A model generated the notes under the pieces. That model was not told where the DNA came from. It ran no database searches and worked only from the letters and a program-made list of their open reading frames with translations. The position numbers and the translations under genes are program-made. DNA of 26,557 nt from a virus, in the IMG/VR virus record IMGVR_UViG_3300032288_002529, positions 1 to 26,557 of that record. One strand, given 5' to 3'. This document shows, one piece after another, positions 1-26,557 of the stretch. Every line of letters starts with the position of its first letter. Position 1 is the stretch's first letter.

Positions 1-504
1 TACTCCGGCGCGAAGTCCGCGTTTGACCGTTCCAAGATTGCCGAGGTCGTTACTTCGATGACCCAAGCGAATCTCCCTTACGAGGAACGCGCCGGCCTCA
101 TCTCCCCCGCCGCTTACGGTCAGCTCCTCAAGGACCCGACGATTTCGCAGTATCTTTCCATCGGCTCGACCGAACCCGTCCGCGACGGTCGCATCGGTTC
201 GATTCACGGCCTCGAGCTTTTCGAGTATAACGGTTTCCCGACCTCCGGCACGGCCTTTACCGAGGGCCTCAACGGCCTCGTTTCTTGCAAGGAGGGTTGG
301 GTTATCGCGACCCGCGTCACTAACGCCCCCCTCACGGGCGGCGGCGTGCAGGAAACCATCGTCGAACCCGACTCCGGTTTCGCCCTCGCGTTCCGTCAGT
401 ATTACAATTGGCAGGAGGGCAAGATGCACCTCAATATGTCGTTCGTCAACGGCATCGCCAAGGGCAACGGCGCGGGCCTCCAGCGCATCGCCTTCACCTC
501 CTAA
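1..504 (+). CDS. Major capsid protein, C-terminal part (5' end outside window)
   Basis: The frame is open from base 1 and ends at TAA 502-504, so this is the last 167 residues of a longer protein. The fragment has the beta-rich, Gly-rich character of HK97/P22-type coat C-termini, for example DGRIGSIHGLELFEYNGF and the end region around FRQYYNWQEGKMHL. A strong terminator follows directly. Codon choice differs from almost every other gene here: Gln is CAG in six of seven cases and both His codons are CAC, whereas neighbours use CAA and CAT. That fits a very highly expressed protein. Head-module position (connectors downstream, terminase at the far end of the window) supports the call. Capsid identity is inferred from character and position, not from a database match. 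Confidence 0.72.
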   Translation, partial: YSGAKSAFDRSKIAEVVTSMTQANLPYEERAGLISPAAYGQLLKDPTISQYLSIGSTEPVRDGRIGSIHGLELFEYNGFPTSGTAFTEGLNGLVSCKEGWVIATRVTNAPLTGGGVQETIVEPDSGFALAFRQYYNWQEGKMHLNMSFVNGIAKGNGAGLQRIAFTS

Positions 505-529
505 TCGGAGGCCGCGATACAACCAAACG

Positions 530-554
530 AACCCCCGGCGACGGGGGTTTTTTT
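530..554 (+). terminator. Rho-independent terminator after capsid gene
   Basis: A perfect 8-bp stem (AACCCCCG / CGGGGGTT) with a GCGA tetraloop is followed by a T run. It sits 26 bases after the capsid stop codon. It should separate capsid transcription from the promoter array downstream. Confidence 0.93.
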
Positions 555-648
555 GTGCCCGGAGTTTAAAATATTATAAAACCCTAGGTAGGGAAAACAT
601 CGTTTGACCCGCATAAACATTGGTTGGAATGGGGTTGAAAATAGTTTG

Positions 649-687
649 ATAAATAATCTTTACAACGGCCCGGGTTTGGTAATGATT
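649..687 (+). promoter_or_regulatory. Promoter 1 of the small-gene array
   Basis: The A/T box ATAAATAATC (649-658) is directly followed by TTTACA (659-664) and, after 17 bases, ATGATT (682-687). The same A/T box plus TTGNCN hexamer recurs at 1005, 1359 and 1755, each time ahead of a small gene. The -35 and upstream box are well conserved; the -10 is weak and its exact register is uncertain. The rest of 555-648 shows nothing I can identify. Confidence 0.6.
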
Positions 688-709
688 ATGTTCGTTCCCA
701 CTAACTCAA

Positions 710-1012
710 ATGAACATCAACAACGCTCCCGAATCCTCCTCCAACGCCCGAAAGGTTTTCACCTCCGCCGCCGACTTCAAGGCCGCTTGCAAGGCCGCCA
801 AGAAAATCGAACCCGGGACTTGGGCACAGCTCGCCGCCGCGCTCATCGAGGCCGGTCACGGCGACGCTCTCAACGATGTCATCGCCCTCCTCGCGACCGA
901 CCGCGGTCGCAAATTGGTTCGCCCGAACAACGCCCGCGAGGTCGAGAAGATGACCGAGAATCTCTCCCGCCTCCGGTTGGGGACCAAATGGGAAAACCCG
1001 GAAAATAAATAA
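710..1012 (+). CDS. Small protein of unknown function (array gene 1)
   Basis: 100 aa, mostly helical and soluble, with a basic stretch (KAACKAAKK) near residues 26-34. I recognise no domain. Codon use matches the genome (CAA, CTC, TTG; no CTG), so it is a real gene. The ATG is preceded by CACTAACTCAA, with no Shine-Dalgarno site. It has its own promoter, lies after the capsid terminator, and its stop codon TAA sits inside the repeated A/T box of the next promoter. A small, independently transcribed gene inside the head operon is typical of a phage accessory (moron) gene; that role is inference. Confidence 0.72.
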   Translation: MNINNAPESSSNARKVFTSAADFKAACKAAKKIEPGTWAQLAAALIEAGHGDALNDVIALLATDRGRKLVRPNNAREVEKMTENLSRLRLGTKWENPENK

Positions 1013-1064
1013 TCTTGCCGACCGCCTCGCGCTCGTCCATCTTCTCCTTACCAACCCAACGCTC
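1005..1064 (+). promoter_or_regulatory. Promoter 2 and leader, 60-bp repeat copy A
   Basis: A/T box 1005-1014, TTGCCG 1015-1020, 17-bp spacer, CATCTT 1038-1043, then a conserved leader with CCTTACCAACCCAACGCTC ending three bases before the next ATG. The whole 60 bp recurs at 1755-1814 with one visible mismatch (T1027/C1777), exactly 750 bp away. The CATCTT-to-CGCTC part also recurs at 13392-13418. Confidence 0.75.
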
Positions 1065-1067
1065 AAA

Positions 1068-1280
1068 ATGAAATCCATAAAATCCAAAGCCGGGACCGCG
1101 TGGGTCCGCGAAGCTAACCAAGCGAAGATGAATGCCCTCGACCGCCTCGCCGATGTCCCCGGCGACACCGTCGACAATTCCATCGACCGCCTCCGGCTTC
1201 TCATCGAGGAGGCCCAAGCGACAATCGCGGCCCTCGAACGCGACCGCGAAATCGTTACCAAGTTTCGGGCGGAGTCGTAA
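1068..1280 (+). CDS. Small helical protein of unknown function (array gene 2)
   Basis: 70 aa, charged, with a probable coiled coil over residues 35-70 (SIDRLRLLIEEAQATIAALE region). The start is fixed by the repeated leader ending three bases upstream of ATG 1068. A strong terminator begins 29 bases after the stop, so promoter 2 and this terminator make it a monocistronic unit. No family recognised. A short coiled-coil protein could be a multimeric regulator or inhibitor, but nothing in the sequence settles this. Confidence 0.72.
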   Translation: MKSIKSKAGTAWVREANQAKMNALDRLADVPGDTVDNSIDRLRLLIEEAQATIAALERDREIVTKFRAES

Positions 1281-1308
1281 TCAAACCCGCCGACTCTCTG
1301 CCGCCAAC

Positions 1309-1333
1309 GGCCCCGGACCTCCGGGGCCTTTTT
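1309..1333 (+). terminator. Rho-independent terminator after array gene 2
   Basis: A perfect 8-bp stem GGCCCCGG / CCGGGGCC with an ACCT loop is followed by five T. It isolates array gene 2 from promoter 3. Confidence 0.93.
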
Positions 1334-1358
1334 GTTACCTCCGAACAAACCGACGAAA

Positions 1359-1397
1359 ATAAATAATCTTGACTCGGACCCCGGTTTGACTAGTATG
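1359..1397 (+). promoter_or_regulatory. Promoter 3 of the small-gene array
   Basis: A/T box ATAAATAATC (1359-1368), TTGACT (1369-1374), then AGTATG at a 17-bp spacer or the better TAGTAT (1391-1396) at 16. Transcription would begin very close to ATG 1406, leaving almost no leader. This is the only array promoter without the CCAACCCAACGC leader. Confidence 0.68.
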
Positions 1398-1405
1398 TCG
1401 GAGTA

Positions 1406-1762
1406 ATGAGTAACTCAACGCTCCCCAATTGGATTCCCGCCCGCATTAGATTCGCCGTCCGAGAAGCTTGCCGCGACTCCGACGGTTATTGGATTTACCT
1501 CCGCGACGAGTTCGAGGTCGACGACGGGTCGACCGTCTCGGGCGATACCGCGGCGGAGGCCGTCGAATACTTTTGGTCGGGTCGGCATAATGCCGCGTTG
1601 AGGGAGGCCCTCAAGTCCCGCCCCGCCCCGGTCGCCCGCAAGCGTAAGGTCGAGTTTGTCGCGGGACCCTTGGTCCCCGGCCCTCGCGCCCCCGGCGTTA
1701 CCGACCGCCAATGGGCAATCTACCTCGGGAAGCTTTCCCGGTATAACGCCGCCCATAAATAA
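1406..1762 (+). CDS. Small protein of unknown function (array gene 3)
   Basis: 118 aa. The N-terminal half looks like a small alpha/beta domain (residues 10-60) rich in aromatic and acidic residues; a basic linker (RKRKVEF) follows, then a C-terminal segment with WAIYLGKLSRY. No family recognised. GGAG lies only two bases upstream of the ATG, too close for a normal Shine-Dalgarno site. Given promoter 3, the mRNA could be nearly leaderless. The stop codon TAA 1760-1762 is embedded in the next promoter's A/T box, as in array gene 1. Confidence 0.72.
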   Translation: MSNSTLPNWIPARIRFAVREACRDSDGYWIYLRDEFEVDDGSTVSGDTAAEAVEYFWSGRHNAALREALKSRPAPVARKRKVEFVAGPLVPGPRAPGVTDRQWAIYLGKLSRYNAAHK

Positions 1763-1814
1763 TCTTGCCGACCGCCCCGCGCTCGTCCATCTTCTCCTTA
1801 CCAACCCAACGCTC
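1755..1814 (+). promoter_or_regulatory. Promoter 4 and leader, 60-bp repeat copy B
   Basis: Near-identical copy of 1005-1064: A/T box, TTGCCG 1765-1770, CATCTT 1788-1793, and leader CCAACCCAACGCTC ending three bases before ATG 1818. Confidence 0.75.
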
Positions 1815-1817
1815 TCG

Positions 1818-2000
1818 ATGATTACCCCGACCAAAAAGTTTACCGTCGAAACTTGGTTCGACCGTTCCTCGCGCAATTGGATTACCCAAATCAAGGACCT
1901 CGACGGCAACCAAGTCGGGTCGGCCTTGTTCGCGGGTCGCCGCGACTCCGCGGTCGTTAATCATTCCGACGCGGTCGCCCTCGCCCTCGCCCTTGCCTAA
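1818..2000 (+). CDS. Small protein of unknown function (array gene 4)
   Basis: 60 aa. I start it at ATG 1818, not at in-frame starts further upstream, because the repeated leader ends exactly there and the upstream extension overlaps array gene 3 and the promoter. The protein looks like a small beta-sheet domain (KKFTVETWFDRSSRNWITQ, then a strand around DLDGNQVGSALF) ending in an Ala/Leu-rich helix. No family recognised. It is the last gene of the array; connector genes begin 67 bases later. Confidence 0.68.
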   Translation: MITPTKKFTVETWFDRSSRNWITQIKDLDGNQVGSALFAGRRDSAVVNHSDAVALALALA

Positions 2001-2046
2001 CGCCGGGACGGGGCCTTAAACCCCTCTCCTTTGCCTTTGGAGGCCC

Positions 2047-2069
2047 TTTGACTCCCGCGGAGGGGTATG
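2047..2069 (+). promoter_or_regulatory. Conserved initiation element with hairpin and Shine-Dalgarno site
   Basis: The 23 bases here recur exactly at 8426-8448, and their first part at 3752-3770. CTCC-CGC-GGAG forms a small stem-loop whose 3' arm is part of the GGAGGGG Shine-Dalgarno site, four to five bases before ATG 2067. This is one of the very few Shine-Dalgarno sites in the window. Confidence 0.65.
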
Positions 2070-2411
2070 GGGTCAATTCAAGACGAATGGGCCGCGGACG
2101 CGGCGGCAATCCTCGGGGAAATCCCCAAGGCCGTTACCGTCCGTCGAACCCCGACCGGGACGGCGACCTCGTTCGATGTCCTCCTCGGCCCTCCGATGGT
2201 GCAACAAGATATGGAAACGGGCGGTTTCCTTAACTCGACCTCGTTCGAGGTTAAGTTCCTCAAGTCCGATTGCCTCGCCCATCCCGGGGTCGTCGTATTC
2301 GGCAACCTCGTCGCATACAACGGGGCGGATTATCGCATCGTCGCCTTGAACGACCGCCCTCCCTCGGCGTGGGTTATCGCCAAGGTCCAATCCAAGGCGG
2401 GTCCGGCCTAA
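2067..2411 (+). CDS. Probable head-closure (stopper) / head-tail joining protein
   Basis: 114 aa, the usual size of small head-completion proteins. An N-terminal helix (residues 1-20) precedes a beta-rich domain. The strand pattern VVFGNLVAYNGADYRIVAL at about 76-94 is typical of small connector/stopper proteins. Start at ATG 2067 is supported by the GGAGGGG element. Its stop overlaps the next start (TAATG at 2409-2413), so the neck genes are translationally coupled. The VGN-x-IAYN-x3-Y strand pair recurs in the probable tail tube at 3786. The role is inferred from size, fold pattern and position ahead of a gp10-like protein and tail terminator. Confidence 0.58.
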   Translation: MGSIQDEWAADAAAILGEIPKAVTVRRTPTGTATSFDVLLGPPMVQQDMETGGFLNSTSFEVKFLKSDCLAHPGVVVFGNLVAYNGADYRIVALNDRPPSAWVIAKVQSKAGPA

Positions 2412-3313
2412 TGGCAAAGATTGAGGTCGGACGCGGCGTATCCGTCGACCCGGCGGGGTTCCTCGCGCATCTCGACGACTTTTGTAAGATTATGGGCCGG
2501 GGAATGGGACCCGTCCTCCTCGACCAATCCGGAAAGTTTTGTTTGGATATGATTAAGTTTACCCGGCCTTTTACGGGAAAGAGTCCCGGCAACGGGGACA
2601 GCGTATCGGCGAAAAAGAAGGGAATCGAAAACATCAAGGCCGCGGTATATAAGATTTTTTCCCCCATCGACAAGGCGACCGCGAATCAAGTCGCCGACCT
2701 AAACGATTACGAGGTTTTCAAGCTTTGGAACCGACGGGCCGGGACCAAGGCCGGACGGTCGATGAAATGGAAACAATTTCAACCAAGGTTTGCCCGCGGC
2801 AAAACTTACGGGTTCATCCCTGCGGGCGGAATCTCGACGATTGCCAAGGTTCATACCTCGGCCCGAGAGGATTCGGGACACGGCCCCCTCAAGGCCGTTT
2901 ATCGGAATATGAAGGGACCGATTTTCATCGTCGCCAAGGAGTCCGACCTTAAATCCTACATCAAACAAAAGTCCGCGTCCGTCGGTCGCCTAAAATCCGC
3001 TTACGCGTTCGCCGCGACGCGCATCGGTTCCAAGGAAACCTTTAGGGATTGGACGAGGAACCCCCTCGGGGAAAAATACGCGATTGGGATTAACCAAGTT
3101 AATGTCCTTAACAAACCCTCGGTTACGGTCGGAAACTCAATCGGCCTTAAGGGGATGCGCGGCGGGTTAGAGAATTATATCCAAATCGCGATTAATGCCC
3201 GCGCCTACGCGATGCGGGTTCAAATGGCGCAGGAACTCAAGAAACGGAAACAAACCGTTTGGGGGGCTTTCCGGGCGGGACAGGGCCTCGCGTCGCATCG
3301 TTACTTTACTTAA
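2411..3313 (+). CDS. Probable neck/tail-completion protein, HK97 gp10-like but enlarged
   Basis: 300 aa, start overlapping the previous stop (TAATG). Residues near 40-65 hold the pattern K-x-TRPFTGKSPGNGDSV, resembling the [KR]-x-x-P-x-TG-x-L signature of HK97 gp10-type tail components. Typical gp10 proteins are about half this size, so the extra basic middle region (105-200, with KWKQFQPRFARGK) is unusual. The C-terminus is basic and helical (QMAQELKKRKQTVWGAF). Position between stopper and terminator matches gp10. Start 2411 is preferred over the longer in-frame extension, which overlaps the previous gene. Confidence 0.52.
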   Translation: MAKIEVGRGVSVDPAGFLAHLDDFCKIMGRGMGPVLLDQSGKFCLDMIKFTRPFTGKSPGNGDSVSAKKKGIENIKAAVYKIFSPIDKATANQVADLNDYEVFKLWNRRAGTKAGRSMKWKQFQPRFARGKTYGFIPAGGISTIAKVHTSAREDSGHGPLKAVYRNMKGPIFIVAKESDLKSYIKQKSASVGRLKSAYAFAATRIGSKETFRDWTRNPLGEKYAIGINQVNVLNKPSVTVGNSIGLKGMRGGLENYIQIAINARAYAMRVQMAQELKKRKQTVWGAFRAGQGLASHRYFT

Positions 3314-3318
3314 TCCTT

Positions 3319-3756
3319 ATGCCTACCCTATACGGAATCCGAACCATCGCCGAGGAATCGGTCCTCGCCGCGTTCCAAGCTCACGCGACCGACCTCCCGG
3401 GGGTCCAATTGCACGCGGGACAAACCGACGAGATTCGTTCGGTCCCGATTATCATCCTTCACGCGGAGTCGTCCCGGGCGCATCCCGACCTAGGCGGAAC
3501 CCCCTTGGGTAATTTCGAGATTACCTTTAAGGTTTATGTTTATTCCTCCGCGGACGATTCGACCCTCGCCGAACATCGCGCCCGGGTCGAGGCCGCGCAA
3601 GGGATTATGGAGGACCTCGCGGCCCTCAAGTCCGCTTGGACTCAAGGAACTTTGTATTCGGGTTGGGTCGTCTCGGAGGATGAGGGCGTATCCGACCGAC
3701 GATGGGGTAATTTGATTACTTACAACCTCGTCGCGGTATACCCTCCCAACCCTTGA
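3319..3756 (+). CDS. Probable tail terminator protein
   Basis: 145 aa. The pattern is that of small tail terminators: N-terminal helix (EESVLAAFQAH), a strand with IRSVPIIILHAESS, a loop, then a strand pair FEITFKVYVYSSADD, a helix over the HRARVEAAQGIMEDL region and C-terminal strands ending YNLVAVYPP. Such proteins cap the tail tube and set its joint with the neck. There is no Shine-Dalgarno site before ATG 3319. Its TGA stop lies inside the TTGACTCC part of the conserved element at 3752. Function is inferred from fold pattern and order. Confidence 0.55.
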   Translation: MPTLYGIRTIAEESVLAAFQAHATDLPGVQLHAGQTDEIRSVPIIILHAESSRAHPDLGGTPLGNFEITFKVYVYSSADDSTLAEHRARVEAAQGIMEDLAALKSAWTQGTLYSGWVVSEDEGVSDRRWGNLITYNLVAVYPPNP

Positions 3757-3770
3757 CTCCCGCGGAGGAT
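3752..3770 (+). promoter_or_regulatory. Partial copy of the hairpin/GGAGG initiation element
   Basis: CTTGACTCCCGCGGAGGAT matches the first part of the elements at 2047 and 8426, including CTCC-CGC-GGAG. Here the GGAGG lies about 20 bases before ATG 3786, too far for an ordinary Shine-Dalgarno site. Confidence 0.5.
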
Positions 3771-3785
3771 TAAGAACTAACGACG

Positions 3786-4124
3786 ATGGCCCTCCCCACT
3801 ACTTACGGCGTTGACCATACTTTCGGCCTTTATGCGACCGAATCTTTCGTCACCCTTCAGGCCGACGACTTTTCGACCAAGCTTAATATCGATGTTACCG
3901 TAATGGACGAAACGGGTCGCATCATTACCGACCGCGTCGACGATAAGCAAATCGACATTACCCTTTCCGGTATCCTCAAGGTCGGCGCGACCCTCCCGGT
4001 CGTCGGCAATACGATTGCCTATAACTCGATTACCTATATCATCAAGTCCGTCGATGATAACGGGACGAACAATTCGTTCCGCAAGATTACGGTTAAGGGC
4101 GTAAAGTATCAGCAAATCGCCTAA
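3786..4124 (+). CDS. Probable major tail tube protein (unusually short)
   Basis: 112 aa, almost entirely beta-strand prone. It sits where siphoviruses place the tail tube: after the terminator and before the chaperone and tape measure. It lacks Cys and has alternating polar/hydrophobic strands (KLNIDVTVMDETGRIITDRV). Two of four Gln codons are CAG, which is rare elsewhere but dominant in the capsid gene, hinting at high expression. The strand pair VVGNTIAYNSITYIIKSVDD resembles one in the stopper at 2067; stopper and tube folds are known to be related in phages. At 112 aa it is shorter than most tube proteins, so a small structural adaptor is possible. Confidence 0.5.
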   Translation: MALPTTYGVDHTFGLYATESFVTLQADDFSTKLNIDVTVMDETGRIITDRVDDKQIDITLSGILKVGATLPVVGNTIAYNSITYIIKSVDDNGTNNSFRKITVKGVKYQQIA

Positions 4125-4147
4125 TCCCTCCGGGGATTAACCCATCG

Positions 4148-4747
4148 ATGGAAAAGCGATGGATAAAGGCCGCGACGATTCTCCCTCCGACCATTAAGGT
4201 CGCGGGGGTTCGTTTGTTGCCTTTTTGCCTCCGGCATCGAGTCGCATTGGAGGCCCTCGATTCCCCGGTCCTTGATATGTCCAAGGCGGTCGGACCGACG
4301 GACCTTGTCCTCGCGGCCCGGGTCCTTTCGACTCATAATCTCGACGAGGTTCGTCGGCCTTGGACGGTCGCCGAACAATTCCGAATCGCCCTTTATAATC
4401 ATTCGCCGCGTCGGTTCATCAATGAACTCCGCAAGCTCGTTATTTATTTCGAGGCCCAATCACTTTGGCCCCGCCTTTGGCAAAAGGACGAAAAACCCAA
4501 GTCGGTTTCGATTCCTTGGCAACTGACCATTGTCGCCTCCCTCGTCCGTAATGGTTGCCACCTTGAGTCCGCTTGGACGATGCCGGAGGCCGAGGCGGTT
4601 TGGTTGTATTTTGCCAATTGCAAGGCCGAGGGTTCGTCGGTTGAAATCATCTCCGACGAGGAATGGGAGGCGATGGAACGGTCCAAGCTTACGGACTCGA
4701 CCAAGGCCCAAACCGACACCGCGACAACCAACCCAAGGGCAAATTAA
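4148..4747 (+). CDS. Probable tail assembly chaperone
   Basis: 199 aa, mainly helical, ending in a polar Thr/Lys-rich tail (about 180-199). It lies between the probable tail tube and the tape measure, the fixed place of tail assembly chaperones (lambda G/GT type). The C-terminal acidic helix EIISDEEWEAMERSKL is plausible for chaperone binding. I looked for a frameshift extension: the gene ends in TAA two bases before the tape-measure ATG and I see no convincing slippery site, so only the short form is supported. The name rests on position. Confidence 0.45.
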   Translation: MEKRWIKAATILPPTIKVAGVRLLPFCLRHRVALEALDSPVLDMSKAVGPTDLVLAARVLSTHNLDEVRRPWTVAEQFRIALYNHSPRRFINELRKLVIYFEAQSLWPRLWQKDEKPKSVSIPWQLTIVASLVRNGCHLESAWTMPEAEAVWLYFANCKAEGSSVEIISDEEWEAMERSKLTDSTKAQTDTATTNPRAN

Positions 4748-4749
4748 AA

Positions 4750-5964: not shown

Positions 5965-5973
5965 ATCAAACTT

Positions 5974-6825
5974 ATGTCCTCAACCCGAATCGATTACGGC
6001 AATTCGCTAGAGTTCGCAATCCGCCAACCCGCGTCGACTGTCGAAATCAACGCGTTCGGCCTTGCCCAAGCTCAAGCGACCTTTGCCGTCGACTCCGACC
6101 CGGCAAACCTAAAGGTCGCGATTTCCAATTTCACCGCGGGCGTTCTTTATCCCGACGACCTTGGGTTTCCGATGGTTTCGTATCGTTATAGGATTACGAC
6201 CTCGAAAGCAGGGGTCGCGATGTTTACCGTCGATTATATGGGCATCGACCGGGAAAACGGATATACCGACCCGCAAATCCAAGGGGTCGTTAATACCTCC
6301 GCGCAACCAATCGAAACGCATCCCAACTTTACCAAGATTACGGACCCGTCAATTTCGATGAATGTCCTCGCGGGCGTTCCGTCCGACCCAAAAAATAAGG
6401 CGATTTTCGTCCCGCATACCGACCCGGATACCGGGGTCGTTCAAAACTTGTTCAAGGGGTTCGGCGTTTCGACGACCGCGGCGACCGTCAACATCAAGGC
6501 CGGGGTTCGCCAATATCTCCGCCCGATGACGACCGTCCGCGGGACGATTTACTTTAATTCGTCGAACTCGGGACTTGCGGAAAAGCTTTCCGGTAATGTC
6601 GGAAAATACCTAAAATCCCCGGACTCCCAAACCCTCCTCAAACCTTGGTTGGTTTATGGGGTCGTTTACGGCGACCGTTGGTTGGTTACGGCGGCAAATA
6701 TCGAACCGATTGGAACGCCGGAAACACTAACGGCCCCGTTCGTTAAGGTTACTTACGACCTTATGTATGGGGGCCTACTTGGTTGGGATAAGGATATTTA
6801 CGCGGAAGGAGATTCGGTTTTCTAA
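5974..6825 (+). CDS. Probable distal tail / baseplate-hub protein
   Basis: 283 aa, beta-rich, with no membrane or signal sequence. It directly follows the tape measure, the place of distal tail (Dit-like) proteins that close the tube and anchor the fibres. Strand-rich segments (TISLE-like repeats absent) include SYRYRITTSKAGVAMFTVDYMG in two halves near 68-89 and a C-terminal region with VKVTYDLMYGGLLGWD. I do not recognise a catalytic or lysozyme motif. No Shine-Dalgarno site precedes ATG 5974. The assignment is positional. Confidence 0.45.
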   Translation: MSSTRIDYGNSLEFAIRQPASTVEINAFGLAQAQATFAVDSDPANLKVAISNFTAGVLYPDDLGFPMVSYRYRITTSKAGVAMFTVDYMGIDRENGYTDPQIQGVVNTSAQPIETHPNFTKITDPSISMNVLAGVPSDPKNKAIFVPHTDPDTGVVQNLFKGFGVSTTAATVNIKAGVRQYLRPMTTVRGTIYFNSSNSGLAEKLSGNVGKYLKSPDSQTLLKPWLVYGVVYGDRWLVTAANIEPIGTPETLTAPFVKVTYDLMYGGLLGWDKDIYAEGDSVF

Positions 6826-14463: not shown

Positions 14464-14748
14464 ATGACCCTGCAACATCTCAAGGAGGTTCAAAACCTCC
14501 AATGGGAGTTTTACGAGGCGAACGACCGCATCCTTACGGGCGACATCGCCGCCGCCAAGTTTGCGCTCCCGGTCCTCCGCGCAATGTGCGACGCGACCGC
14601 CTCCCAATTGCGGGCCTTGGGGTTGGTCGATGTCTACCTCGAACCCTACCTCGCCGCCGGGGGTTGGGTCGGCCTTACGACCTCTTATTCCTTCCCCGAC
14701 GGCGTTAAGGTCGAGGGGTCGTCCGTCCCCCGGAGGATTGCCCGATGA
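14464..14748 (+). CDS. Small protein of unknown function
   Basis: 94 aa, started at ATG 14464, four bases after the previous stop. Helical N-terminal two thirds (LKEVQNLQWEFYEANDRI, then PVLRAMCDATASQLRALG), then a Gly/Ser-rich strand region. Its last four bases overlap the methyltransferase start (ATGA), so they are translationally coupled. No family recognised. Confidence 0.62.
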   Translation: MTLQHLKEVQNLQWEFYEANDRILTGDIAAAKFALPVLRAMCDATASQLRALGLVDVYLEPYLAAGGWVGLTTSYSFPDGVKVEGSSVPRRIAR

Positions 14749-15359
14749 AAGTCCTAATCGCTTGCGAATACTCGGGGACCGTCCGCGACGCGTTCCGAAA
14801 GCTTGGACACGATGCGTTGTCTTGCGACCTCCTCCCGACCGATGTCCCCGGCCCGCATTACCAAGGTTCGGTTTTCGATATCCTCGACCAAGGATGGGAC
14901 CTTATGGTCGCCCATCCCCCTTGCACCTATTTGACCGTTACGGGAAACAAATGGTTTAAGCCCGAGTTCAAGGACAGATTCCCCGACCGCCATCAACAAC
15001 GCGAGGACGCGTTGCGTTTTTTCGTTAAGCTTTTCGAGTGTTCAATTCCAAAGGTATGTCTCGAAAACCCGGTCGGGGTTGTTTCGAGCTTATATCGGAA
15101 ACCCTCGCAATATGTCCAACCTTATCAATTCGGGGACCCTCATTCCAAAAAAACCGGACTTTGGTTGCGCGGATTGCCTAACCTAGTCCCGACCAAACTT
15201 GTCGAACCGTTGTTTTATACCTATAAGGACGGTCGACGCGACCCGTTGTGGCATATGGAATCAATGCGAATGAAACCCCTTGAAAGGATGAAATACCGTT
15301 CAAAGACATTCCAAGGGATTGCCGACGCAATGGCGCAACAATGGGGGGACATCCGATGA
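14745..15359 (+). CDS. DNA cytosine-5 methyltransferase-like protein (compact phage type)
   Basis: 204 aa. Motif I-like start VLIACEYSGTVRDAFRKLGH (residues 3-22) binds SAM in this family. PPC with catalytic Cys60 lies in AHPPCTYLT (56-64), and ENP (107-109) in KVCLENPVG corresponds to motif VI. A later segment QPYQFGDPHSKKTGLWLRG is characteristic of compact phage members. It lacks room for a normal target-recognition domain (typical C5 enzymes exceed 300 aa), so its specificity is unclear, or it may need a partner. It may protect phage DNA from restriction. ATGA overlaps at both ends tie it to its neighbours. Confidence 0.7.
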   Translation: MKVLIACEYSGTVRDAFRKLGHDALSCDLLPTDVPGPHYQGSVFDILDQGWDLMVAHPPCTYLTVTGNKWFKPEFKDRFPDRHQQREDALRFFVKLFECSIPKVCLENPVGVVSSLYRKPSQYVQPYQFGDPHSKKTGLWLRGLPNLVPTKLVEPLFYTYKDGRRDPLWHMESMRMKPLERMKYRSKTFQGIADAMAQQWGDIR

Positions 15360-18300: not shown

Positions 18301-19140
18301 ATGCTAACCCAAGACCAAATCGAGGCCGCAAACAAGGCCCGCAATCGTTCCGAATATGATGCCCTCCCGGGCCTCAACCAATCGACGGCCCGCCTTTTCC
18401 TGCGGTCCATCGCCCACGCGCATTATTCCTTGAATAACCCCAAGGAACCGACCGCCGCGATGCGACTCGGGATTTACGCCCATAAAGCTTTCCTCGAACC
18501 CGGCGAATGGGCCTCGTATATGCATTTGCCCGAATACGATGGGTCGAAAAACTCGAACGAATGGAAAAAGATTAAGGCCGATTTTATCGCCGCCAACCCC
18601 GGCGCGACCATCATCTCCGCCGAGGAACATCGCGACGCGAACGGAATCGCCGACTCCCTCCGCCGCATCCTGCCGGAATACGGCCTCCAAATCCTCGCGG
18701 TCGAGGTCGGCCTTACCGCGGATTATATCGTCCCACTCAAGGGGTCCCTCGATATCATCGCCTCGGACGGTTTCATTTATGACATCAAGTCGACCTCCGA
18801 TTCCGCGACCCGCGACGATTGGGGCCGCGGCCTCGAATGGTCCGACGAACTCGCCTTGCAAATCGCTTGGTATTCCGTCCTATACCGAGAAAACTTTGGA
18901 GTTAGCCCCAAGGGGTTCCGGCATATCGTCGTCGAAACCAAGGCCCCGTTCGAGGTCCAAGTTTTCGAGGCCGACGAGGAAATCCGAAACCGCGGAATCG
19001 AACTTATGCTCCGGGTTATTAACCAATACGCCCTTTATAAAACTTGCCTCGATGCCGGGTCGCCCTTTGTTCCGGGTTATCCCCGCGAAGTCATCAAGGT
19101 TTCGCGCCGCAAGTCGACGGCCCTCCCCTCCTTTTCCTAA
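18301..19140 (+). CDS. RecE-like PD-(D/E)XK exonuclease
   Basis: 279 aa. LGIYAHKAFLEP (His61) matches the G-x3-H-x3-L motif of RecE/Cas4-type nucleases. VEVGL gives Glu135. KGSLDIIASDGFIYDIKST carries the core D151 ... D161-I-K163. ELALQIAWYS gives Gln187 (the Q-x3-Y motif). Length fits a single-domain RecE/DUF3799-type nuclease. It should resect dsDNA ends to produce single strands for ERF and the SSB-like protein encoded next door. The leader AACAAACAAAATCCCGCCCT, A/C-rich, lies upstream of the ATG. Confidence 0.85.
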   Translation: MLTQDQIEAANKARNRSEYDALPGLNQSTARLFLRSIAHAHYSLNNPKEPTAAMRLGIYAHKAFLEPGEWASYMHLPEYDGSKNSNEWKKIKADFIAANPGATIISAEEHRDANGIADSLRRILPEYGLQILAVEVGLTADYIVPLKGSLDIIASDGFIYDIKSTSDSATRDDWGRGLEWSDELALQIAWYSVLYRENFGVSPKGFRHIVVETKAPFEVQVFEADEEIRNRGIELMLRVINQYALYKTCLDAGSPFVPGYPREVIKVSRRKSTALPSFS

Positions 19141-20247: not shown

Positions 20248-20478
20248 ATGCAAGACCAAATTAACCGACTCGGTTTCCAAGCTTGGGCCGACAACCTCAT
20301 CGTCAACGCGCTCGAAAACCTCGACGGCAAGTTCGCCGATTTCCAAGTCGACCGCGGCGACGCGTCAATCGTCGGGCGCGTCCTCGGCGACAAAATGACC
20401 ATCGCGGTTCGGGCATACATCACGGGCCGGGGTTGGGAGATGACCGAACAAACCCTTAAGCTCCCGAACATCAAATGA
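20248..20478 (+). CDS. Small protein of unknown function
   Basis: 76 aa from ATG 20248; the upstream in-frame extension overlaps the previous gene. N-terminal helix (INRLGFQAWADNLIVNALEN), then a strand region (DASIVGRVLGDKMTIAVRAYI) resembling a small alpha/beta domain. The stop overlaps the kinase start (ATGA), so they are coupled. Not recognised. Confidence 0.58.
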   Translation: MQDQINRLGFQAWADNLIVNALENLDGKFADFQVDRGDASIVGRVLGDKMTIAVRAYITGRGWEMTEQTLKLPNIK

Positions 20479-21505: not shown

Positions 21506-22278
21506 GCAAAGGCCCGATTCGGTTCGTATTCGCGTCCGACTCCCACGGGGACCAAGCGGACCCGGAGGCCCTCGACGCGTTGTTCGAGTATTGCCGCGAC
21601 TTCCGACCGACCGTCCGCATCGCCGGGGGCGACCATTTCGACCTCCGGTCCCTACGCCGCGGGGTCGGTAATGACGCGGAGTCAGCCGAGTCCCTCCGCG
21701 ATGACTTGGACGCGGGATTCGATTTCTTGGAAAAGTTCAAACCGACGGTTTACCTTATGGGGAATCACGAAAACCGTTTAAACTCCCTCATCGCCTCCTC
21801 CGGGTCGGCCCTCGTCCGCGATTATTGCCAAGATACCCTCGACGCAATCCGCCGCCAAGCTCGTCGATGCGGGGCGAAACGAATCCTCCCCTATAACGCC
21901 GGGGAAAAGGGCGTTTACCGCCTCGGACCTGTCGCGATGATTCACGGTTACGCCCATTCGACGACGGCGACCGCGACCCAAGGTTTGCACTACGCCGACC
22001 GCGGCGGCGCGTTGATTCACGGGCATACCCACAACCTCGCGCAAGTTAACTTGACCAAGGAGGGCGGCGGGGCCGCGTTTTCCGCGGGTTGCCTATGCCT
22101 TAAGGACCCCCCATATGCGTCGACTAGATTGGCAACGGCCCGTTGGGGGTCGGGATTCGCCGCGGGATGGGTCGACGGAAACGATTGGCAAGTTTGGTTG
22201 GTCCATAAGCTCGCCAAGGAACGCCGTTGGGTTTGGCAAACCGACCTTAAGATTTATACCCCCAAGGCCCGACGATAA
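21502..22278 (+). CDS. Calcineurin-like metallophosphoesterase
   Basis: 258 aa from ATG 21502 (ATGA overlap); the longer in-frame start lies inside the previous gene. All signature motifs are present in order: D-x-H (SDSHGD, Asp13/His15), GD-x-x (GGDHFD, Asp44), GNHE (87-90), H148 in MIHGYAH, and GHTH (174-177). These bind the two metals of calcineurin-type phosphatases/nucleases. Phage members are mostly of unknown substrate; options include DNA ends, cyclic nucleotides or phosphorylated metabolites. It lies between a dNMP kinase and a PAPS-reductase-like gene, suggesting nucleotide-related chemistry. Cytoplasmic; no signal peptide. Confidence 0.85.
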   Translation: MSKGPIRFVFASDSHGDQADPEALDALFEYCRDFRPTVRIAGGDHFDLRSLRRGVGNDAESAESLRDDLDAGFDFLEKFKPTVYLMGNHENRLNSLIASSGSALVRDYCQDTLDAIRRQARRCGAKRILPYNAGEKGVYRLGPVAMIHGYAHSTTATATQGLHYADRGGALIHGHTHNLAQVNLTKEGGGAAFSAGCLCLKDPPYASTRLATARWGSGFAAGWVDGNDWQVWLVHKLAKERRWVWQTDLKIYTPKARR

Positions 22279-22571
22279 TGGCCCGCCAAGGCAAACGACC
22301 CCAAGTCAAGGACGAGGTGTTCCGCGCCATAATCTCGGAACTCAACAAGTCCGAACAAACCCCTCCGCCCGGGTTCCTTACCCGCGACGAATGGGCCGAA
22401 CGATGGGACCTAAAGCGGACCGCGGCCTCCCGGTATCTCTCTTGGGCGACTCAACGCGGCATCCTCGAACGCATTTTCCTCCGCCGCCGATTCGAGACGC
22501 AAGTCCGCAAGGTCCCCCATTGGGGCCTCAAGCTCCCGACCAAAAAGAAAACATCGACTCGGAACGATTAA
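22278..22571 (+). CDS. Winged-helix DNA-binding protein
   Basis: 97 aa, TAATG overlap. RDEWAERWDLKRTAASRYLS and GILERIFLRRRFETQVRKV (about 36-80) give a helix-turn-helix followed by a basic wing, like small MarR/Lrp-type domains. It ends in a Lys-rich tail. It could be a local regulator of the genes around it, or a replication accessory. Family not named with certainty. Confidence 0.62.
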   Translation: MARQGKRPQVKDEVFRAIISELNKSEQTPPPGFLTRDEWAERWDLKRTAASRYLSWATQRGILERIFLRRRFETQVRKVPHWGLKLPTKKKTSTRND

Positions 22572-22591
22572 GCCCCAATTTGCCCGACCTT

Positions 22592-23464
22592 ATGTCCCAA
22601 TCATTCTTTGACCCTCCCCCTCCGACGAAATATACCGTCCTCAACCTCGGGGCCGGGGTTCAATCGTCGGCCTTGGCTCTTATGGCGGCAAAGGGCGAGG
22701 TCGGACCGATGCCCGATTTCGCCGTTTTCGCCGATACCCAAGCGGAACCGACGGGCGTTTATCGTTGGCTCGATTGGCTCGAAACCCAATTGCCGTTTCC
22801 GGTTATCCGCGTAACCAAGGGAAACTTGACCGAGGATTCCCTAAAGGTCCGGTTTAAGAAAAGTCCAAAATACGGCGATGTTTCGTATTTGAAGCGCATA
22901 ATCCCGGCGTTTGGAATCTCCGACTCCGGCGAGTTTTCGGGGATGCTTGGTCGTTCTTGCACCGCGGATTATAAGGTCCAACCCATTGTCGCCGAAATCA
23001 AGAGGCGATGCAAAATCAAGAAGGATGACAAGTCCCCCGTCGTTACTCAATGGATTGGGATTTCCTATGACGAAATGCAACGAATGAAATTGCCGAACAA
23101 AGCTTGGACGCAACACCGTTGGCCCTTGATTGAGAAAAGGATGACCCGCGGGCATTGTATCGAATGGATGCGGAAAAACAATTACCCCGAACCTCCCCGG
23201 TCGGCGTGCTATTATTGCCCGTTCCATTCCCGCCAAGAGTGGCGACGAATGAGGAACGAGGACCCCGAGTTTTTCCAAAAGGCCATCGACTTCGACGAGG
23301 AACTCCGGCGCAAATGGAACGAAAACCGCGGAGGTATGCGTATGTCGGTTTTCATCAATGTCGAACGACGGCCCTTGCGCGAAATCGACTTTGACTCCGA
23401 GGAGGACAAGGGCCAACAAGTTATCGACTTTCAATCCGAGTGCGAGGGGATGTGCGGCCTATGA
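22592..23464 (+). CDS. PAPS-reductase/ATP-pyrophosphatase-like protein
   Basis: 290 aa from ATG 22592; the in-frame stretch upstream is only shadow. The PP-loop appears as LNLGAGVQSSALALMA (residues 17-32), a variant of SGGxDS. DFAVFADTQAEPTGVYRWLD (42-61) fits the next conserved block (ADT-x-x-E). Cysteines at 123 (CTADYK), 206 and 209 (CYYCPFH), 284 and 288 (CEGMCGL) could hold a metal or Fe-S cluster. The family adenylates or reduces sulfur substrates; phage members are common but their role is unsettled, and DndC, which adds sulfur to DNA, is a relative. No other dnd genes are seen. The stop overlaps the next start (ATGA). Confidence 0.78.
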   Translation: MSQSFFDPPPPTKYTVLNLGAGVQSSALALMAAKGEVGPMPDFAVFADTQAEPTGVYRWLDWLETQLPFPVIRVTKGNLTEDSLKVRFKKSPKYGDVSYLKRIIPAFGISDSGEFSGMLGRSCTADYKVQPIVAEIKRRCKIKKDDKSPVVTQWIGISYDEMQRMKLPNKAWTQHRWPLIEKRMTRGHCIEWMRKNNYPEPPRSACYYCPFHSRQEWRRMRNEDPEFFQKAIDFDEELRRKWNENRGGMRMSVFINVERRPLREIDFDSEEDKGQQVIDFQSECEGMCGL

Positions 23465-23637
23465 ACGAACGACTTTTGAGGGCCGCGAAACAACTCGCCG
23501 ATGCCGTCCGCCTCGAACGCGAGTATAAGCTAATTTTCGGAGAATGTCCTAAAGACGACATTGACAAGGCATTGGACGAGTTCGATGCCGCATATAACGC
23601 CGCCAATTATAAGCATACATTTAGGCCCGAGAAATAA
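23461..23637 (+). CDS. Small helical protein of unknown function
   Basis: 58 aa from ATG 23461, coupled to the previous gene by ATGA. Two helices (LLRAAKQLADAVRLEREYKL and DIDKALDEFDAAYNAANY) form a likely hairpin. No family recognised; position suggests a partner of either the PAPS-reductase-like protein or the ATPase. Confidence 0.58.
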   Translation: MNERLLRAAKQLADAVRLEREYKLIFGECPKDDIDKALDEFDAAYNAANYKHTFRPEK

Positions 23638-23658
23638 TCCCCAAACAAAACCCGCCCA

Positions 23659-24570
23659 ATGCCCGACCCAACCTCCCCGCCCCCCGGCGATGGGACCGAA
23701 ATCTTTTCGCCCTCATCCCTCCGAGACTTCGACCCCGCGAACGACCCCGATTGCGTAATCGGTCGGCGTTGGCTTTGCAAAGGGGGTTCGCTTATGATTG
23801 TCGGCAACACCGGGACGGGCAAGTCGTCCCTAATGATGCAATTCGCCGTCCGATGGGCCGTCGGCAAGGACGCGTTCGGCATCAAACCCAAGGAACCCCT
23901 CCGGTCCATCATCGCCCAAGCGGAAAACAATTTTGGAGATGTCGCGGAGGGATACCAAGGGGCCGTCGCCGGGGCAAAGCTTACGATGTCGGAAATCGCG
24001 ACCCTCGACGAAAACCTCCTCATCGTCCGCAATACGACCGCGGTCGGCGACAAGTTCCCCGAGTTCATCGAGGGCCTTATTACATCCCATCGGGCATCGA
24101 TTATTTATGTCGACCCCCTCCTTTCGTTCGCCGGGTTCGACATCGCCGACCAAGAGGCGACCTCGACATTCCTCCGGCATCGCCTCGACCCCATCCTCCG
24201 GAAAACGGGATGCATCCTCGTCTTTATGCATCATACGACCAAACCCAAACCCGCCTCGGAAACCGACGGGCAAACGAACGCGGCCCTCGCATATACCGGG
24301 GCCGGGTCCGCGGATTGGGCGAATTATTCGAGAGAGTGCGCCGCGCTCGTTAGATGCCCGGGCGACGAACCCGTTTATAAGTTCATTTTGACGAAAAGGC
24401 GGTCGCGTGCGGGCCTAAAGGATATTAACGGCAATTTCGCCGGGGAAATCCTTATCCGACACTCCTCCCAACCCGGGGTCATCGCTTGGGAATACGCAAT
24501 CCCCGGAGACGAGACGCAATCGAGGGCCAATCCTAGCCCCGCCAAGGGGTCGCCAAGGCGGTTTGCCTAG
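23659..24570 (+). CDS. RepA-like AAA ATPase, probable replicative helicase or helicase loader
   Basis: 303 aa. Walker A GNTGTGKSS (49-57), a RecA-fold segment, Walker B ASIIYVDPLLSF (Asp152), and the VFMHHTTKP motif (188-196) typical of RepA/AAA_25-type hexameric helicases. QAENNFGD (87-94) matches the conserved [AE]-E-[ND] block. It should drive replication initiation. The leader ACAAAACCCGCCCA precedes ATG 23659, a good copy of the leader type. Three tandem 12-bp repeats and an inverted repeat lie just downstream, so it may act there. Confidence 0.82.
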   Translation: MPDPTSPPPGDGTEIFSPSSLRDFDPANDPDCVIGRRWLCKGGSLMIVGNTGTGKSSLMMQFAVRWAVGKDAFGIKPKEPLRSIIAQAENNFGDVAEGYQGAVAGAKLTMSEIATLDENLLIVRNTTAVGDKFPEFIEGLITSHRASIIYVDPLLSFAGFDIADQEATSTFLRHRLDPILRKTGCILVFMHHTTKPKPASETDGQTNAALAYTGAGSADWANYSRECAALVRCPGDEPVYKFILTKRRSRAGLKDINGNFAGEILIRHSSQPGVIAWEYAIPGDETQSRANPSPAKGSPRRFA

Positions 24571-24604
24571 GCCGGACGACCCAACCCTCGTCCTTGACCC
24601 TCAA

Positions 24605-24790
24605 ATGGTCTTAAATCGCCTCCCAACGCGTTTGCGCCCTACCTCGGAAGTTCCCTCGGAAGTTCCCTCGGAAGTTCCGTATATACCCCTAAAGGGGTAT
24701 AACAATACTTCCCCCTTCCCGTTGGTCGGGGTCGTATTGCCTCCGCAACCCATCCCGTCCCGGGTCGGTCCCCTCCCCCGAAATGTCTAA
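24605..24790 (+). CDS. Possible small protein spanning the repeat region
   Basis: 61 aa reading frame from ATG 24605 (or TTG 24563 for 75 aa). It encodes SEVP three times across the 12-bp repeats and Pro/Val-rich sequence after, with no fold I recognise. Its stop overlaps the next start by eight bases, as in real pairs here. However, the A/T-rich hairpin inside is unlike coding sequence in this genome. I think the repeats were selected as DNA and the frame may be incidental. Confidence 0.25.
   Translation: MVLNRLPTRLRPTSEVPSEVPSEVPYIPLKGYNNTSPFPLVGVVLPPQPIPSRVGPLPRNV
24643..24678 (+). repeat. Three perfect tandem 12-bp repeats (iteron-like)
   Basis: CTCGGAAGTTCC occurs three times without gaps at 24643, 24655 and 24667. 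Each unit contains GGAA-G-TTCC, a short palindrome. Tandem sites close to a RepA-like gene are typical of iterons bound by an initiator protein. Confidence 0.85.
24682..24701 (+). repeat. Perfect inverted repeat next to the tandem repeats
   Basis: TATACCCC (24682-24689), loop TAAA, GGGGTATA (24694-24701). It lacks a T run, so it is not a normal terminator. With the adjacent repeats it forms a compact origin-like element, or an RNA hairpin. Confidence 0.75.
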
Positions 24791-25181
24791 CCCGTCCCGC
24801 CCGCGTCGGTTTAAGTCGGCCCATTATGCCCGGGTCCGTCGCCTCGAACATTGGCGCAAGCTTTGGACCGCGGACCCCGAACGAATGGAATCAATCCGCA
24901 AGGTCGCGACCGAGGCCGCGGCAAAGGCACGCCGCGACCGCCAAGATACCCTCGCCCATATCATCTCGACCCAATGGCCCGCGACCCTAACGCCGGACGA
25001 GTTTAAGACCCGACTCGCCAACCTCGCCGCCCAAGTCGTCCGACCCAAGGGCAAACGCCCTTACCAACCCGACTCCCTACGCCGTCGCCTAACAACAAAG
25101 GGCCTCGTCCTATTTAACGCCGACGCGGGCGTTTATGTAAATACCAACCCAATCTCGATTGCCTCGCCTCAACAATCTTAA
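24783..25181 (+). CDS. Basic protein of unknown function, possibly DNA-binding
   Basis: 132 aa, strongly basic and helical in the N-terminal half (SRPRRFKSAHYARVRRLEHW, then AAAKARRDRQDTLAH). The C-terminal half has RLTTKGLVLFNADAGVYVN, a possible winged beta hairpin. It lies between the iteron-like element and the HTH gene at 25197, so it could be an origin-binding or packaging accessory. No family recognised. Confidence 0.62.
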   Translation: MSNPSRPRRFKSAHYARVRRLEHWRKLWTADPERMESIRKVATEAAAKARRDRQDTLAHIISTQWPATLTPDEFKTRLANLAAQVVRPKGKRPYQPDSLRRRLTTKGLVLFNADAGVYVNTNPISIASPQQS

Positions 25182-25196
25182 GAAACCAATGCAATC

Positions 25197-26039
25197 TTGC
25201 CCGGGAACATCTCGACAGAATACCGCCGTTGGTGGGCCAAGCTTTCTCAAAAGGAAAGGAATACCCTTATCGCATCGGGGACTTTTAAGGCCGACGCGAT
25301 TGACCAACCCGACCGCGCCCTTTCCGACTCTCGCGTCGACCAAGATAAGTTCGACTTTGCCGAACCGACCTCAAACGACTCCTCGTATCGTATCCGTTCC
25401 GTCGACTTTACATCTCCCCCGGCAATCGAACAAGTCATCGTAAACGAGGCCGATACAATCCCCGCGGACCCTCGCCTCGCCGAACTCGACCTCGCGTCGT
25501 TCCGACTCCGGGGGATGCTCCATTTCCTCCTCGAATCCTTGGACAAGTCGTCCGACCCCGAGATGCCACTAACCGCCCAAATCATTCGCATCGTCGTCGG
25601 CGAGGGTTGCCCTCCCAAGATGACCGTCCTCGCCAAACAATATGGGATGACCAAGGCCGCGGTTTCTCTCCGGTGTTGCAAGCTACTCCGACGACTCGGC
25701 CTCGAACCCTCCCGGTTTATGCGACCGGAGTCCGAGGTTAAAGCGATGCGCGTTGCCCGTATCGTATCCGTCCATAAGGTCGAACTCGACGAGCATACCG
25801 CCCGGGGTAAGGCCCGCAATCGGCGAGGACCCGGACCCGAGGCCCGCCCCGCATCGCCCGAGAAAAACGCCGAAAAACCGCGGATTTCACTCGTTTCGTC
25901 GTCCTACCCCCCCGGTAAGGAATCTATTACGGGGAGCCTAATCCCCGGCACGCGGTCGCGACCTCGTCATTTTTTCGCAAAAACACGGAGTTTTAGCAAA
26001 GGGCAACGGGAACGCGGCAAGAAGTCCGGCGGCGAATAA
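25197..26039 (+). CDS. Helix-turn-helix protein, sigma/terminase-like DNA-binding domain
   Basis: 280 aa if started at TTG 25197, the only start in frame between the previous stop and the conserved N-terminus; ATG 25189 is out of frame. The central domain (about 125-180) holds MTVLAKQYGMTKAAVSLRCCKLL, split here around a clear HTH of the sigma-region-4/TrfB kind. It is followed by a basic, disordered C-terminus (from about 205) rich in Arg, Pro and Ser. It directly precedes the probable small terminase, so it may regulate the late genes or help packaging. The unusual start and long disordered tail are noteworthy. Confidence 0.6.
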   Translation: MPGNISTEYRRWWAKLSQKERNTLIASGTFKADAIDQPDRALSDSRVDQDKFDFAEPTSNDSSYRIRSVDFTSPPAIEQVIVNEADTIPADPRLAELDLASFRLRGMLHFLLESLDKSSDPEMPLTAQIIRIVVGEGCPPKMTVLAKQYGMTKAAVSLRCCKLLRRLGLEPSRFMRPESEVKAMRVARIVSVHKVELDEHTARGKARNRRGPGPEARPASPEKNAEKPRISLVSSSYPPGKESITGSLIPGTRSRPRHFFAKTRSFSKGQRERGKKSGGE

Positions 26040-26042
26040 CTT

Positions 26043-26557
26043 ATGGCCCTTACGAACAAACAAATCGCGGAGCATTTTGGTTTTACCGCGTCGCGTGCGG
26101 CGGCGTTGATTCGTCAAGGTATGCCGACGGATTCCATCGAGGCCGCGACGGTTTGGCGGGATGCGAGATTGTTGAGGGGGCAACGCGGCGGAGTCGAACA
26201 ACGGGCGGCGATTGCGGTCGACCCGGCGGCGATTAACCCGGACGACGATTTCGAGCAAACGGTCGAACGGCATCGCGAGCTTAAGGAGGCGGCGCGGCAA
26301 AGGTATATCTTGGCCCGCGATGCATCGGACCCGCAGGAACCGAAACTTTACATTACATACCAAAACATCCTCAAGACATTGGTCGTCGTCGAACGCGAGG
26401 CCCTCGCCCGACGCATCGAGGCAAAGGAACTCATTAAAACATCCTTGGCCCTCGACAAGTTTTCGCGGGTCCTCGCGGAGATTAAGGCGGACCTCCTCTC
26501 GATGCCGATTGAGGTCGCGCCCGCGGCGAACCCTGACTCCCCGGGGACGGCGTTAAA
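26043..26557 (+). CDS. Probable terminase small subunit (3' end outside window)
   Basis: Open from ATG 26043 to the window end (171 residues seen). The N-terminus ALTNKQIAEHFGFTASRAAA is an HTH of the Nu1/terminase-small type. An acidic linker follows, then a long helical region (about 65-150) suited to oligomerisation. Small terminase subunits bind the packaging site and present DNA to the large subunit. It uses a TTATGGC start context with no Shine-Dalgarno site. The position, heading toward the missing large terminase and portal genes and wrapping to the capsid gene at base 1, supports the call. Confidence 0.62.
   Translation, partial: MALTNKQIAEHFGFTASRAAALIRQGMPTDSIEAATVWRDARLLRGQRGGVEQRAAIAVDPAAINPDDDFEQTVERHRELKEAARQRYILARDASDPQEPKLYITYQNILKTLVVVEREALARRIEAKELIKTSLALDKFSRVLAEIKADLLSMPIEVAPAANPDSPGTAL

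What the first reader, a model, noticed from the sequence alone, without database searches (positions are those of the whole stretch)
1..26557. GATC appears to be completely absent
Reading the whole window I found no GATC, although GAT and ATC are each very frequent. A random sequence of this length and composition would hold about 100. Complete loss of a 4-base palindrome is classic restriction avoidance and suggests long exposure to hosts with a GATC-specific enzyme (MboI/DpnII/Sau3AI type). The compact C5 methyltransferase encoded here would not be expected to protect the A of GATC; whether it helps at the C is unknown. CTAG, by contrast, occurs more than ten times.
Basis: seen in the sequence. 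Interest (0 to 1): 0.75.

Follow-up and report, generated by a model that had tools for sequence, protein, structure and literature searches.

The report
Phage genome purged of restriction sites
This virus of bacteria has erased not only GATC but at least fifteen different DNA words that bacterial restriction enzymes cut, and its closest relatives have erased slightly different sets, so the genome reads like a record of the enzymes its hosts have used against it.

Summary
Confirmed: GATC occurs 0 times, against 97 expected from base composition, 118 from trinucleotides and 111 from the encoded proteins with own codon usage. GATC is only one of many. An enumeration of degenerate palindromes that did not use enzyme names found 17 maximal absent motifs; 15 are exact known Type II specificities (GATC, ACGT, CATG, GTAC, GRCGYC, YGGCCR, GGYRCC, GRGCYC, RGCGCY, RAATTY, GCGCGC, CTNAG, TTCGAA, ACCGGT, CCWGG), while several sister motifs (GYCGRC, RGGCCY) are at normal frequency. 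Relatives share most absences but swap some: at 90% nucleotide identity AGCT and CCWGG exchange state, at 83% GCGC and GATC do. Changes are mostly single substitutions, mainly in third codon positions. Best reading: passive anti-restriction, driven by many Type II enzymes in a host population with a changing repertoire. The kind is known (T7, N4, Nostoc A-1); this case is in the extreme tail (15 of 78 testable specificities; 1 of 136 unrelated viral contigs reaches 11 per 10 kb, as the window does). Host unproven, perhaps Verrucomicrobiota. Unexplained: near-loss of CAG/CTG and CAC/GTG; avoidance of a Type I-like motif, GAN7TAC.

The parts
1..26557 (.). Whole window: phage genome fragment in which GATC, ACGT, CATG, GTAC, CTNAG, CCWGG, GRCGYC, YGGCCR, GGYRCC, GRGCYC, RGCGCY, RAATTY, GCGCGC, TTCGAA and ACCGGT are all absent; RCCGGY (4 of 64), CCTN5AGG (0), GCCN5GGC (2) are nearly or fully absent
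   Evidence: G000 is an IMG/VR virus record of 26557 bases.
14745..15359 (+). Small DNA methyltransferase (204 aa), C5-like by its PPC and ENP motifs in the sequence; the only candidate active protection gene recognised
   Evidence: PHROG 757 'DNA methyltransferase' E=2e-62; no Pfam or PADLOC hit; relatives of about 50-54% identity in many phages. Target site unknown.
1..504 (+). C-terminal part of major capsid protein, used to find relatives
   Evidence: PHROG 283/267 major head protein; 57-98% identical relatives in IMG/VR
5974..6825 (+). Conserved structural (probably tail) protein, used for the tree and for relatives
   Evidence: no PHROG or Pfam family; role inferred from its place after the tape-measure gene
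18301..19140 (+). PD-(D/E)XK exonuclease (RecE-like)
   Evidence: PF12684 DUF3799 E=3e-12; 'exodeoxyribonuclease 8' relatives
22571..23464 (+). PAPS-reductase-like protein, also matching the SspD phosphorothioation profile
   Evidence: PHROG 424 E=2e-45; PADLOC SspD E=1e-16
23659..24570 (+). Replicative AAA helicase; its cellular relatives give the host hint
   Evidence: PF13481; relatives in Verrucomicrobiota genomes

Best explanation
The genome has been cleared of the cutting sites of many Type II restriction enzymes by selection (passive anti-restriction). Each unmodified site gives the incoming phage DNA a chance of being cut, so mutants that lose sites by mostly single base changes survive better, until none is left. 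The set of missing sites is a record of the enzymes met by this lineage: at least 15 specificities, GATC being one. Because relatives of 83-90% nucleotide identity differ in single specificities, the lineage most likely circulates in a host population with a large and changing restriction repertoire. Shown: the absences, their match to enzyme specificities, the turnover between relatives. Inferred: that the agents are active host restriction enzymes and that the host set is variable.
For: GATC 0 of 111-118 expected. Enumeration of all degenerate palindromes of 4-6 bases without reference to enzymes gave 17 maximal zero motifs with expectation of 8 or more; 15 are REBASE specificities, and 11 of the 13 five- and six-base ones are, against a background of 4.6% (P about 1e-13). 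Partner motifs are normal for GRCGYC/GYCGRC (0 of 82 against 96 of 102), YGGCCR/RGGCCY (0 of 62 against 59 of 64), RCCGGY/YCCGGR (4 of 64 against 73 of 82), RAATTY/YAATTR (0 of 31 against 23 of 30), CCWGG/CCSGG. Relatives from other metagenomes share most absences. Swaps: window to L043/L011, 90.2% identity, AGCT 9 sites to 0 and CCWGG 0 from 13, none conserved where 69% of all 4-mers are; window to L012/L001, 82.8%, GCGC 44 to 0 and GATC 0 from 36, none conserved where 55% of 4-mers are. Changed bases: 34 of 37 GATC differences are single substitutions, 24 of 42 changed bases in third codon positions. Tree places L012, L043 and L038 as the nearest kin with high support. Same method on Nostoc phage A-1 returns GGNCC, CMGCKG, GDGCHC, RCATGY, which to my knowledge are specificities of Nostoc enzymes: a positive control.
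Against: No host is known, so no cognate enzyme has been shown. Near-loss of the three-base words CAG/CTG and CAC/GTG, in all codon frames, does not correspond to any Type II specificity that I can name. Two of the partner motifs (GGRYCC 37 of 82, GYGCRC 1 of 24) and YGCGCR (20 of 62) are themselves low, the first because it contains GGATCC and GGGCCC. Some motifs overlap, so 15 is a count of motifs, not a proof of 15 enzymes.
Confidence: 0.88

Rival explanations
1. GATC is avoided because of Dam methylation, SeqA or MutH mismatch repair, as proposed for phiX174, not because of restriction.
For: phiX174 is devoid of GATC and this has been linked to mismatch repair (PMC5014478).
Against: It explains one word only. 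ACGT, CATG, GTAC, GRCGYC, YGGCCR and others are equally at zero, and sister phage L012/L001 has GATC at 46 of 101 while GCGC is at 0 of 81.
Confidence: 0.04
2. Composition, codon usage or mutation bias of the phage or host removes these words without selection on sites.
For: The window has strongly skewed di- and trinucleotides (CA/TG 0.57, AG/CT 0.59, CAG/CTG about 0.05 of base-composition expectation).
Against: Codon and Markov nulls that absorb these biases still expect 111-118 GATC. Degenerate partners with the same composition are at normal frequency. CTG in L038 corresponds to CTC, TTG, CGG, CCG and CTT in the window, so there is no single mutation class. Close relatives differ at single specificities.
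Confidence: 0.03
3. Assembly or library artefact, for example a restriction-digested library.
For: The record is a metagenomic fragment.
Against: The same absences recur in contigs of at least eight other metagenomes; enzymes used in libraries would not remove 15 specificities; the reading frames are intact.
Confidence: 0.01
4. The absent sites reflect one host strain that carries 15 or more Type II systems at once, rather than a varied population.
For: All these sites are at zero at the same time in one genome.
Against: Relatives swap single specificities at 83-90% identity, which fits a changing pool better; but it is a variant of the main explanation, not its opposite.
Confidence: 0.15

Closest known systems
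Restriction-site elimination in dsDNA phages (survey of Rusinov et al. 2018, PMC6286503)
   Same: Observed/expected below 0.1 at sites of orthodox Type II enzymes; GATC is the most regularly avoided site in that survey (all 46 phages whose hosts encode the corresponding enzymes).
   Different: There elimination is seen in 7.5% of phage-site pairs; here 15 specificities are eliminated in one 26.6 kb genome. That survey saw no Type I avoidance; here one bipartite motif, GAN7TAC, is depleted (2 of 31).
Coliphages T7 and N4
   Same: GATC nearly absent (7 in the two overlapping T7 stretches tested, 1 in the N4 stretches) and several six-base sites absent.
   Different: 5-8 eliminated specificities per 26.5 kb in the same test, against 15 of 78 in the window.
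Nostoc phage A-1
   Same: Eliminated sites GGNCC, CMGCKG, GDGCHC, RCATGY look like a readout of host enzymes (host enzyme list from my own knowledge).
   Different: 4 eliminated specificities; no sequence relation to the window was found.
phiX174 GATC absence
   Same: Complete loss of GATC (PMC5014478).
   Different: Small ssDNA phage, explained there by mismatch repair; here GATC is one of many absent sites.

Membership tests
Phages with restriction-site elimination (Rusinov et al. 2018) | Observed/expected below 0.1 with expected above 15 | tested here: met
   GATC 0/118, GRCGYC 0/82, ACGT 0/75, CATG 0/63, YGGCCR 0/62, GTAC 0/51, GGYRCC 0/39, GRGCYC 0/38, RGCGCY 0/37, RAATTY 0/31, GCGCGC 0/21, CTNAG 0/16, TTCGAA 0/15.4. 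Their statistic (compositional bias) differs from my Markov expectation.
Phages with restriction-site elimination (Rusinov et al. 2018) | The sites are those of orthodox Type II systems | tested here: met
   15 of 17 maximal absent palindromes are in REBASE as carried by Biopython; 11 of 13 of 5-6 bases against 4.6% background
Phages with restriction-site elimination (Rusinov et al. 2018) | The host encodes the cognate restriction enzyme | not testable with these tools
   Host not identified. DpnII family in 11 of 387 genomes of the candidate phylum, one of which (G297) also has a helicase relative
Phages with restriction-site elimination (Rusinov et al. 2018) | Elimination mainly in non-temperate phages | tested here: inconclusive
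   No integrase was recognised among the proteins scanned, but not all proteins were scanned and the record is a fragment
C5-type DNA methyltransferase for self-protection | Methyltransferase profile and catalytic motif | tested here: met
   PHROG 757 E=2e-62; PPC and ENP motifs read in the sequence
C5-type DNA methyltransferase for self-protection | Methylates one of the sites in question | not testable with these tools
   Specificity unknown; no solved relative

The most novel reading that the evidence does not exclude
Besides Type II sites the lineage is under DNA-level selection against a very short, non-palindromic target (CAG/CTG, perhaps CAS/STG) and against Type I-like bipartite motifs (GA-N7-TAC, GAG-N6-TA), so that either an unknown defence with a three-base target or a large family of Type I specificities is at work in its hosts. 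CAG/CTG is at 5% of base-composition expectation in all codon frames, is restored in all frames in the close relative L038, and the remaining CAG sites avoid T six to eight bases downstream.
Probability: 0.2. Interest if true: 0.8.

Novelty: new member of a known kind. Interest (0 to 1): 0.58.

Why it matters
A genome with 15 or more specificities erased, and near-identical relatives with single specificities exchanged, makes the tempo of the restriction arms race measurable in nature: sites of one enzyme can go from dozens to zero, and return, within 10-17% nucleotide divergence. It also turns a phage of unknown host into a list of predicted host methylation motifs that can be tested, and so offers a way to assign hosts. 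The CAG/CTG depletion would matter more, if it proves to be a defence target, because no restriction system with such a short target is known to me.

Tried and rejected
Search of the phage collection at DNA level and with the tail protein: no match. Two scans of all bacterial genomes for hosts: the tail protein gave none, the helicase only two, both Verrucomicrobiota; a profile search in that phylum gave 46 of 387 genomes for the helicase but only two very weak ones for the tail protein, so the host hint stays weak, and no other phylum was sampled as a control. PF00145 in two genomes was not informative. Linking the methyltransferase to a protected site (AGCT or CCWGG): L039 has no detectable copy and L002 has one, without a matching pattern; abandoned. 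A general claim that Type I motifs are avoided was tested by counting depleted three-plus-three motifs by spacer length: with strict thresholds the hits cluster at spacers 4-8 in clades A and B, but with looser significance thresholds the clustering is weak in the window (7 of 21) and in the pooled sets, so only single motifs such as GAN7TAC are put forward. A group of near-duplicate contigs (L069-L073) gave hits at all spacers and was not used.

Full report
Observation. GATC is truly absent: 0 in 26557 bases, with 97 expected from base composition and 118 from the trinucleotides it contains. A codon null that keeps every encoded protein and the window's own codon usage expects 111 in the coding part (z -12.3). 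CTAG occurs 15 times, as reported.

GATC is not alone. In the same first count ACGT, CATG and GTAC are also at exactly zero, with 74, 63 and 41 expected. To avoid choosing words after seeing them, I enumerated all degenerate palindromic motifs of 4-6 bases (letters ACGT, R, Y, S, W, K, M, N), kept those with zero occurrences and an expectation of 8 or more, and then only the most general ones. Seventeen remain. Fifteen are exact specificities of known Type II enzymes: GATC, ACGT, CATG, GTAC, CTNAG, CCWGG, GRCGYC, YGGCCR, GGYRCC, GRGCYC, RGCGCY, RAATTY, GCGCGC, TTCGAA, ACCGGT. Leaving the 4-base ones aside (all 16 exact 4-base palindromes may well be known enzymes' sites), 11 of 13 are in REBASE, against 4.6% of the testable motifs of that length. 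The sister motif of a degenerate site is usually at normal frequency: GYCGRC 96 of 102, RGGCCY 59 of 64, YCCGGR 73 of 82, YAATTR 23 of 30, CCSGG 199 of 176. GGRYCC, GYGCRC and YGCGCR are low. No base-composition effect separates YGGCCR from RGGCCY. Gapped palindromes of known enzymes are also missing: CCTN5AGG 0 and GCCN5GGC 2 in the window.

Relatives. The window is an IMG/VR record. Relatives were fetched with the exonuclease, capsid, helicase and tail proteins. Two contigs of one metagenome, L001 and L012, look like one sister phage; L043 and L011 (another metagenome) are nearer still; L038 comes from the same metagenome as L043 and L011; a clade B (L041, L039, L042, L002, L016, L003, L028, L017) is further out. 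A tree of five concatenated proteins supports L012 as sister to window, L043 and L038 (100/99 and 98/98), with clade B outside. Clade B and L043/L011 share zero GATC, CATG and GTAC and (almost) zero ACGT.

Swaps of single specificities are the strongest evidence for selection on sites. Against L043 and L011 (90.2% identity over 4.8 kb) the window has 9 AGCT where they have none, and they have 13 CCWGG where the window has none; no site is kept in both, although 69% of all 4-base words are kept. Against L012 and L001 (82.8% over 15.6 kb) the window has 44 GCGC where they have 0, and they have 36 GATC where the window has 0; again none is shared, where 55% of 4-base words are. The differences are mostly single substitutions: 34 of 37 for GATC, with 24 of 42 changed bases in third codon positions. 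L038, nearly as close in protein sequence, has GATC 12 of 19, ACGT 19 of 23 and GRCGYC 18 of 18 but still no CATG, GTAC, GGYRCC or GRGCYC. So each specificity comes and goes on its own.

How unusual. In two arbitrary samples of IMG/VR contigs (136 of at least 8 kb, first 10 kb of each) the median contig has 1 eliminated palindromic specificity, two have 8 or more and one, L148, has 15. The window has 11 or 12 in each of three 10 kb stretches and 15 of 78 testable specificities overall. In stretches of the same length T7 has 5 or 6, N4 7 or 8, lambda 1 to 3 and Nostoc phage A-1 4. The four of A-1 (GGNCC, CMGCKG, GDGCHC, RCATGY) are, as far as I recall, specificities of Nostoc enzymes, which is a fair positive control for reading missing sites as host enzymes. 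The published survey reports elimination in 7.5% of phage-site cases (PMC6286503). The window is therefore an extreme case of a known thing, not a unique one.

Mechanism. Most likely the DNA enters unmodified and each site is a chance of being cut; variants with fewer sites survive; the last sites are the most valuable to lose. That this ran to zero for so many enzymes, and that relatives differ by single enzymes, points to a host population with a varied and shifting set of systems. The enzymes themselves are inferred. The only protection gene recognised is a small methyltransferase at 14745-15359 (PHROG 757), whose target is unknown.

Host. Not established. Of all bacterial genomes scanned with the helicase profile, only two gave confirmed relatives, a Puniceicoccales genome and an Akkermansia genome, both Verrucomicrobiota, and 46 of 387 sampled genomes of that phylum have one. 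The DpnII family (GATC) occurs in 11 of 387. The tail protein gave no useful match there. This is a hint only.

What is not explained. CAG/CTG is at 5% and CAC/GTG at 11% of base-composition expectation, in all codon frames, and far below the codon null (CAG 45 of 263, CAC 96 of 415). In L038 CAG and CTG return in all three frames (window 12, L038 84 in aligned coding sequence), so codon preference alone does not explain it. Known palindromes that contain CAG cover only part of the contexts. The remaining CAG sites are poor in T six to eight bases downstream. Separately, GAN7TAC is at 2 of 31 in the window and 1 of 25 in the sister, while neighbouring spacers (N6 17, N8 22, N5 45) are not depleted like this. 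Such a fixed spacer suggests a Type I or Type IIB system. A general excess of Type I-like depletion was seen with strict but not with looser thresholds and is not claimed.

Verdict. Observation confirmed; interpretation right in kind, too narrow in scope.

Noticed in passing
window 1-26557: CAG/CTG and CAC/GTG are at 5% and 11% of base-composition expectation in all codon frames, and CAG/CTG recovers in all frames in the close relative L038; cause unknown.
   Followed up: partly
window 1-26557, both strands: Bipartite motif GAN7TAC is almost absent (2, expected 31) while GAN6TAC, GAN8TAC and GAN5TAC occur 17, 22 and 45 times; looks like a Type I or Type IIB target.
   Followed up: partly
window 22571-23464: PAPS-reductase-like gene also matches the SspD phosphorothioation profile (E=1e-16); 88% identical copies in L027 and L028. 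A link to DNA sulfur modification was not tested.
   Followed up: no
L148 1-14436: Arbitrary control contig with 15 eliminated palindromic specificities in 10 kb (TTAA, CATG, GTAC, ACGT, CCWGG and others), more than the window; unrelated by the searches made.
   Followed up: no
L167 and L139: Control contigs that lack GATC, AGCT, GCGC, CCGG and CGCG altogether.
   Followed up: no
L069-L073: More distant relatives lack CTNAG, CCGG, AGCT, GCWGC, GGYRCC and (nearly) CATG, a different set from the window.
   Followed up: partly
L219 (Nostoc phage A-1, first 50 kb): Depleted three-plus-three motifs cluster at spacers 5-8 (20 of 29), which suggests avoidance of Type I sites.
   Followed up: no
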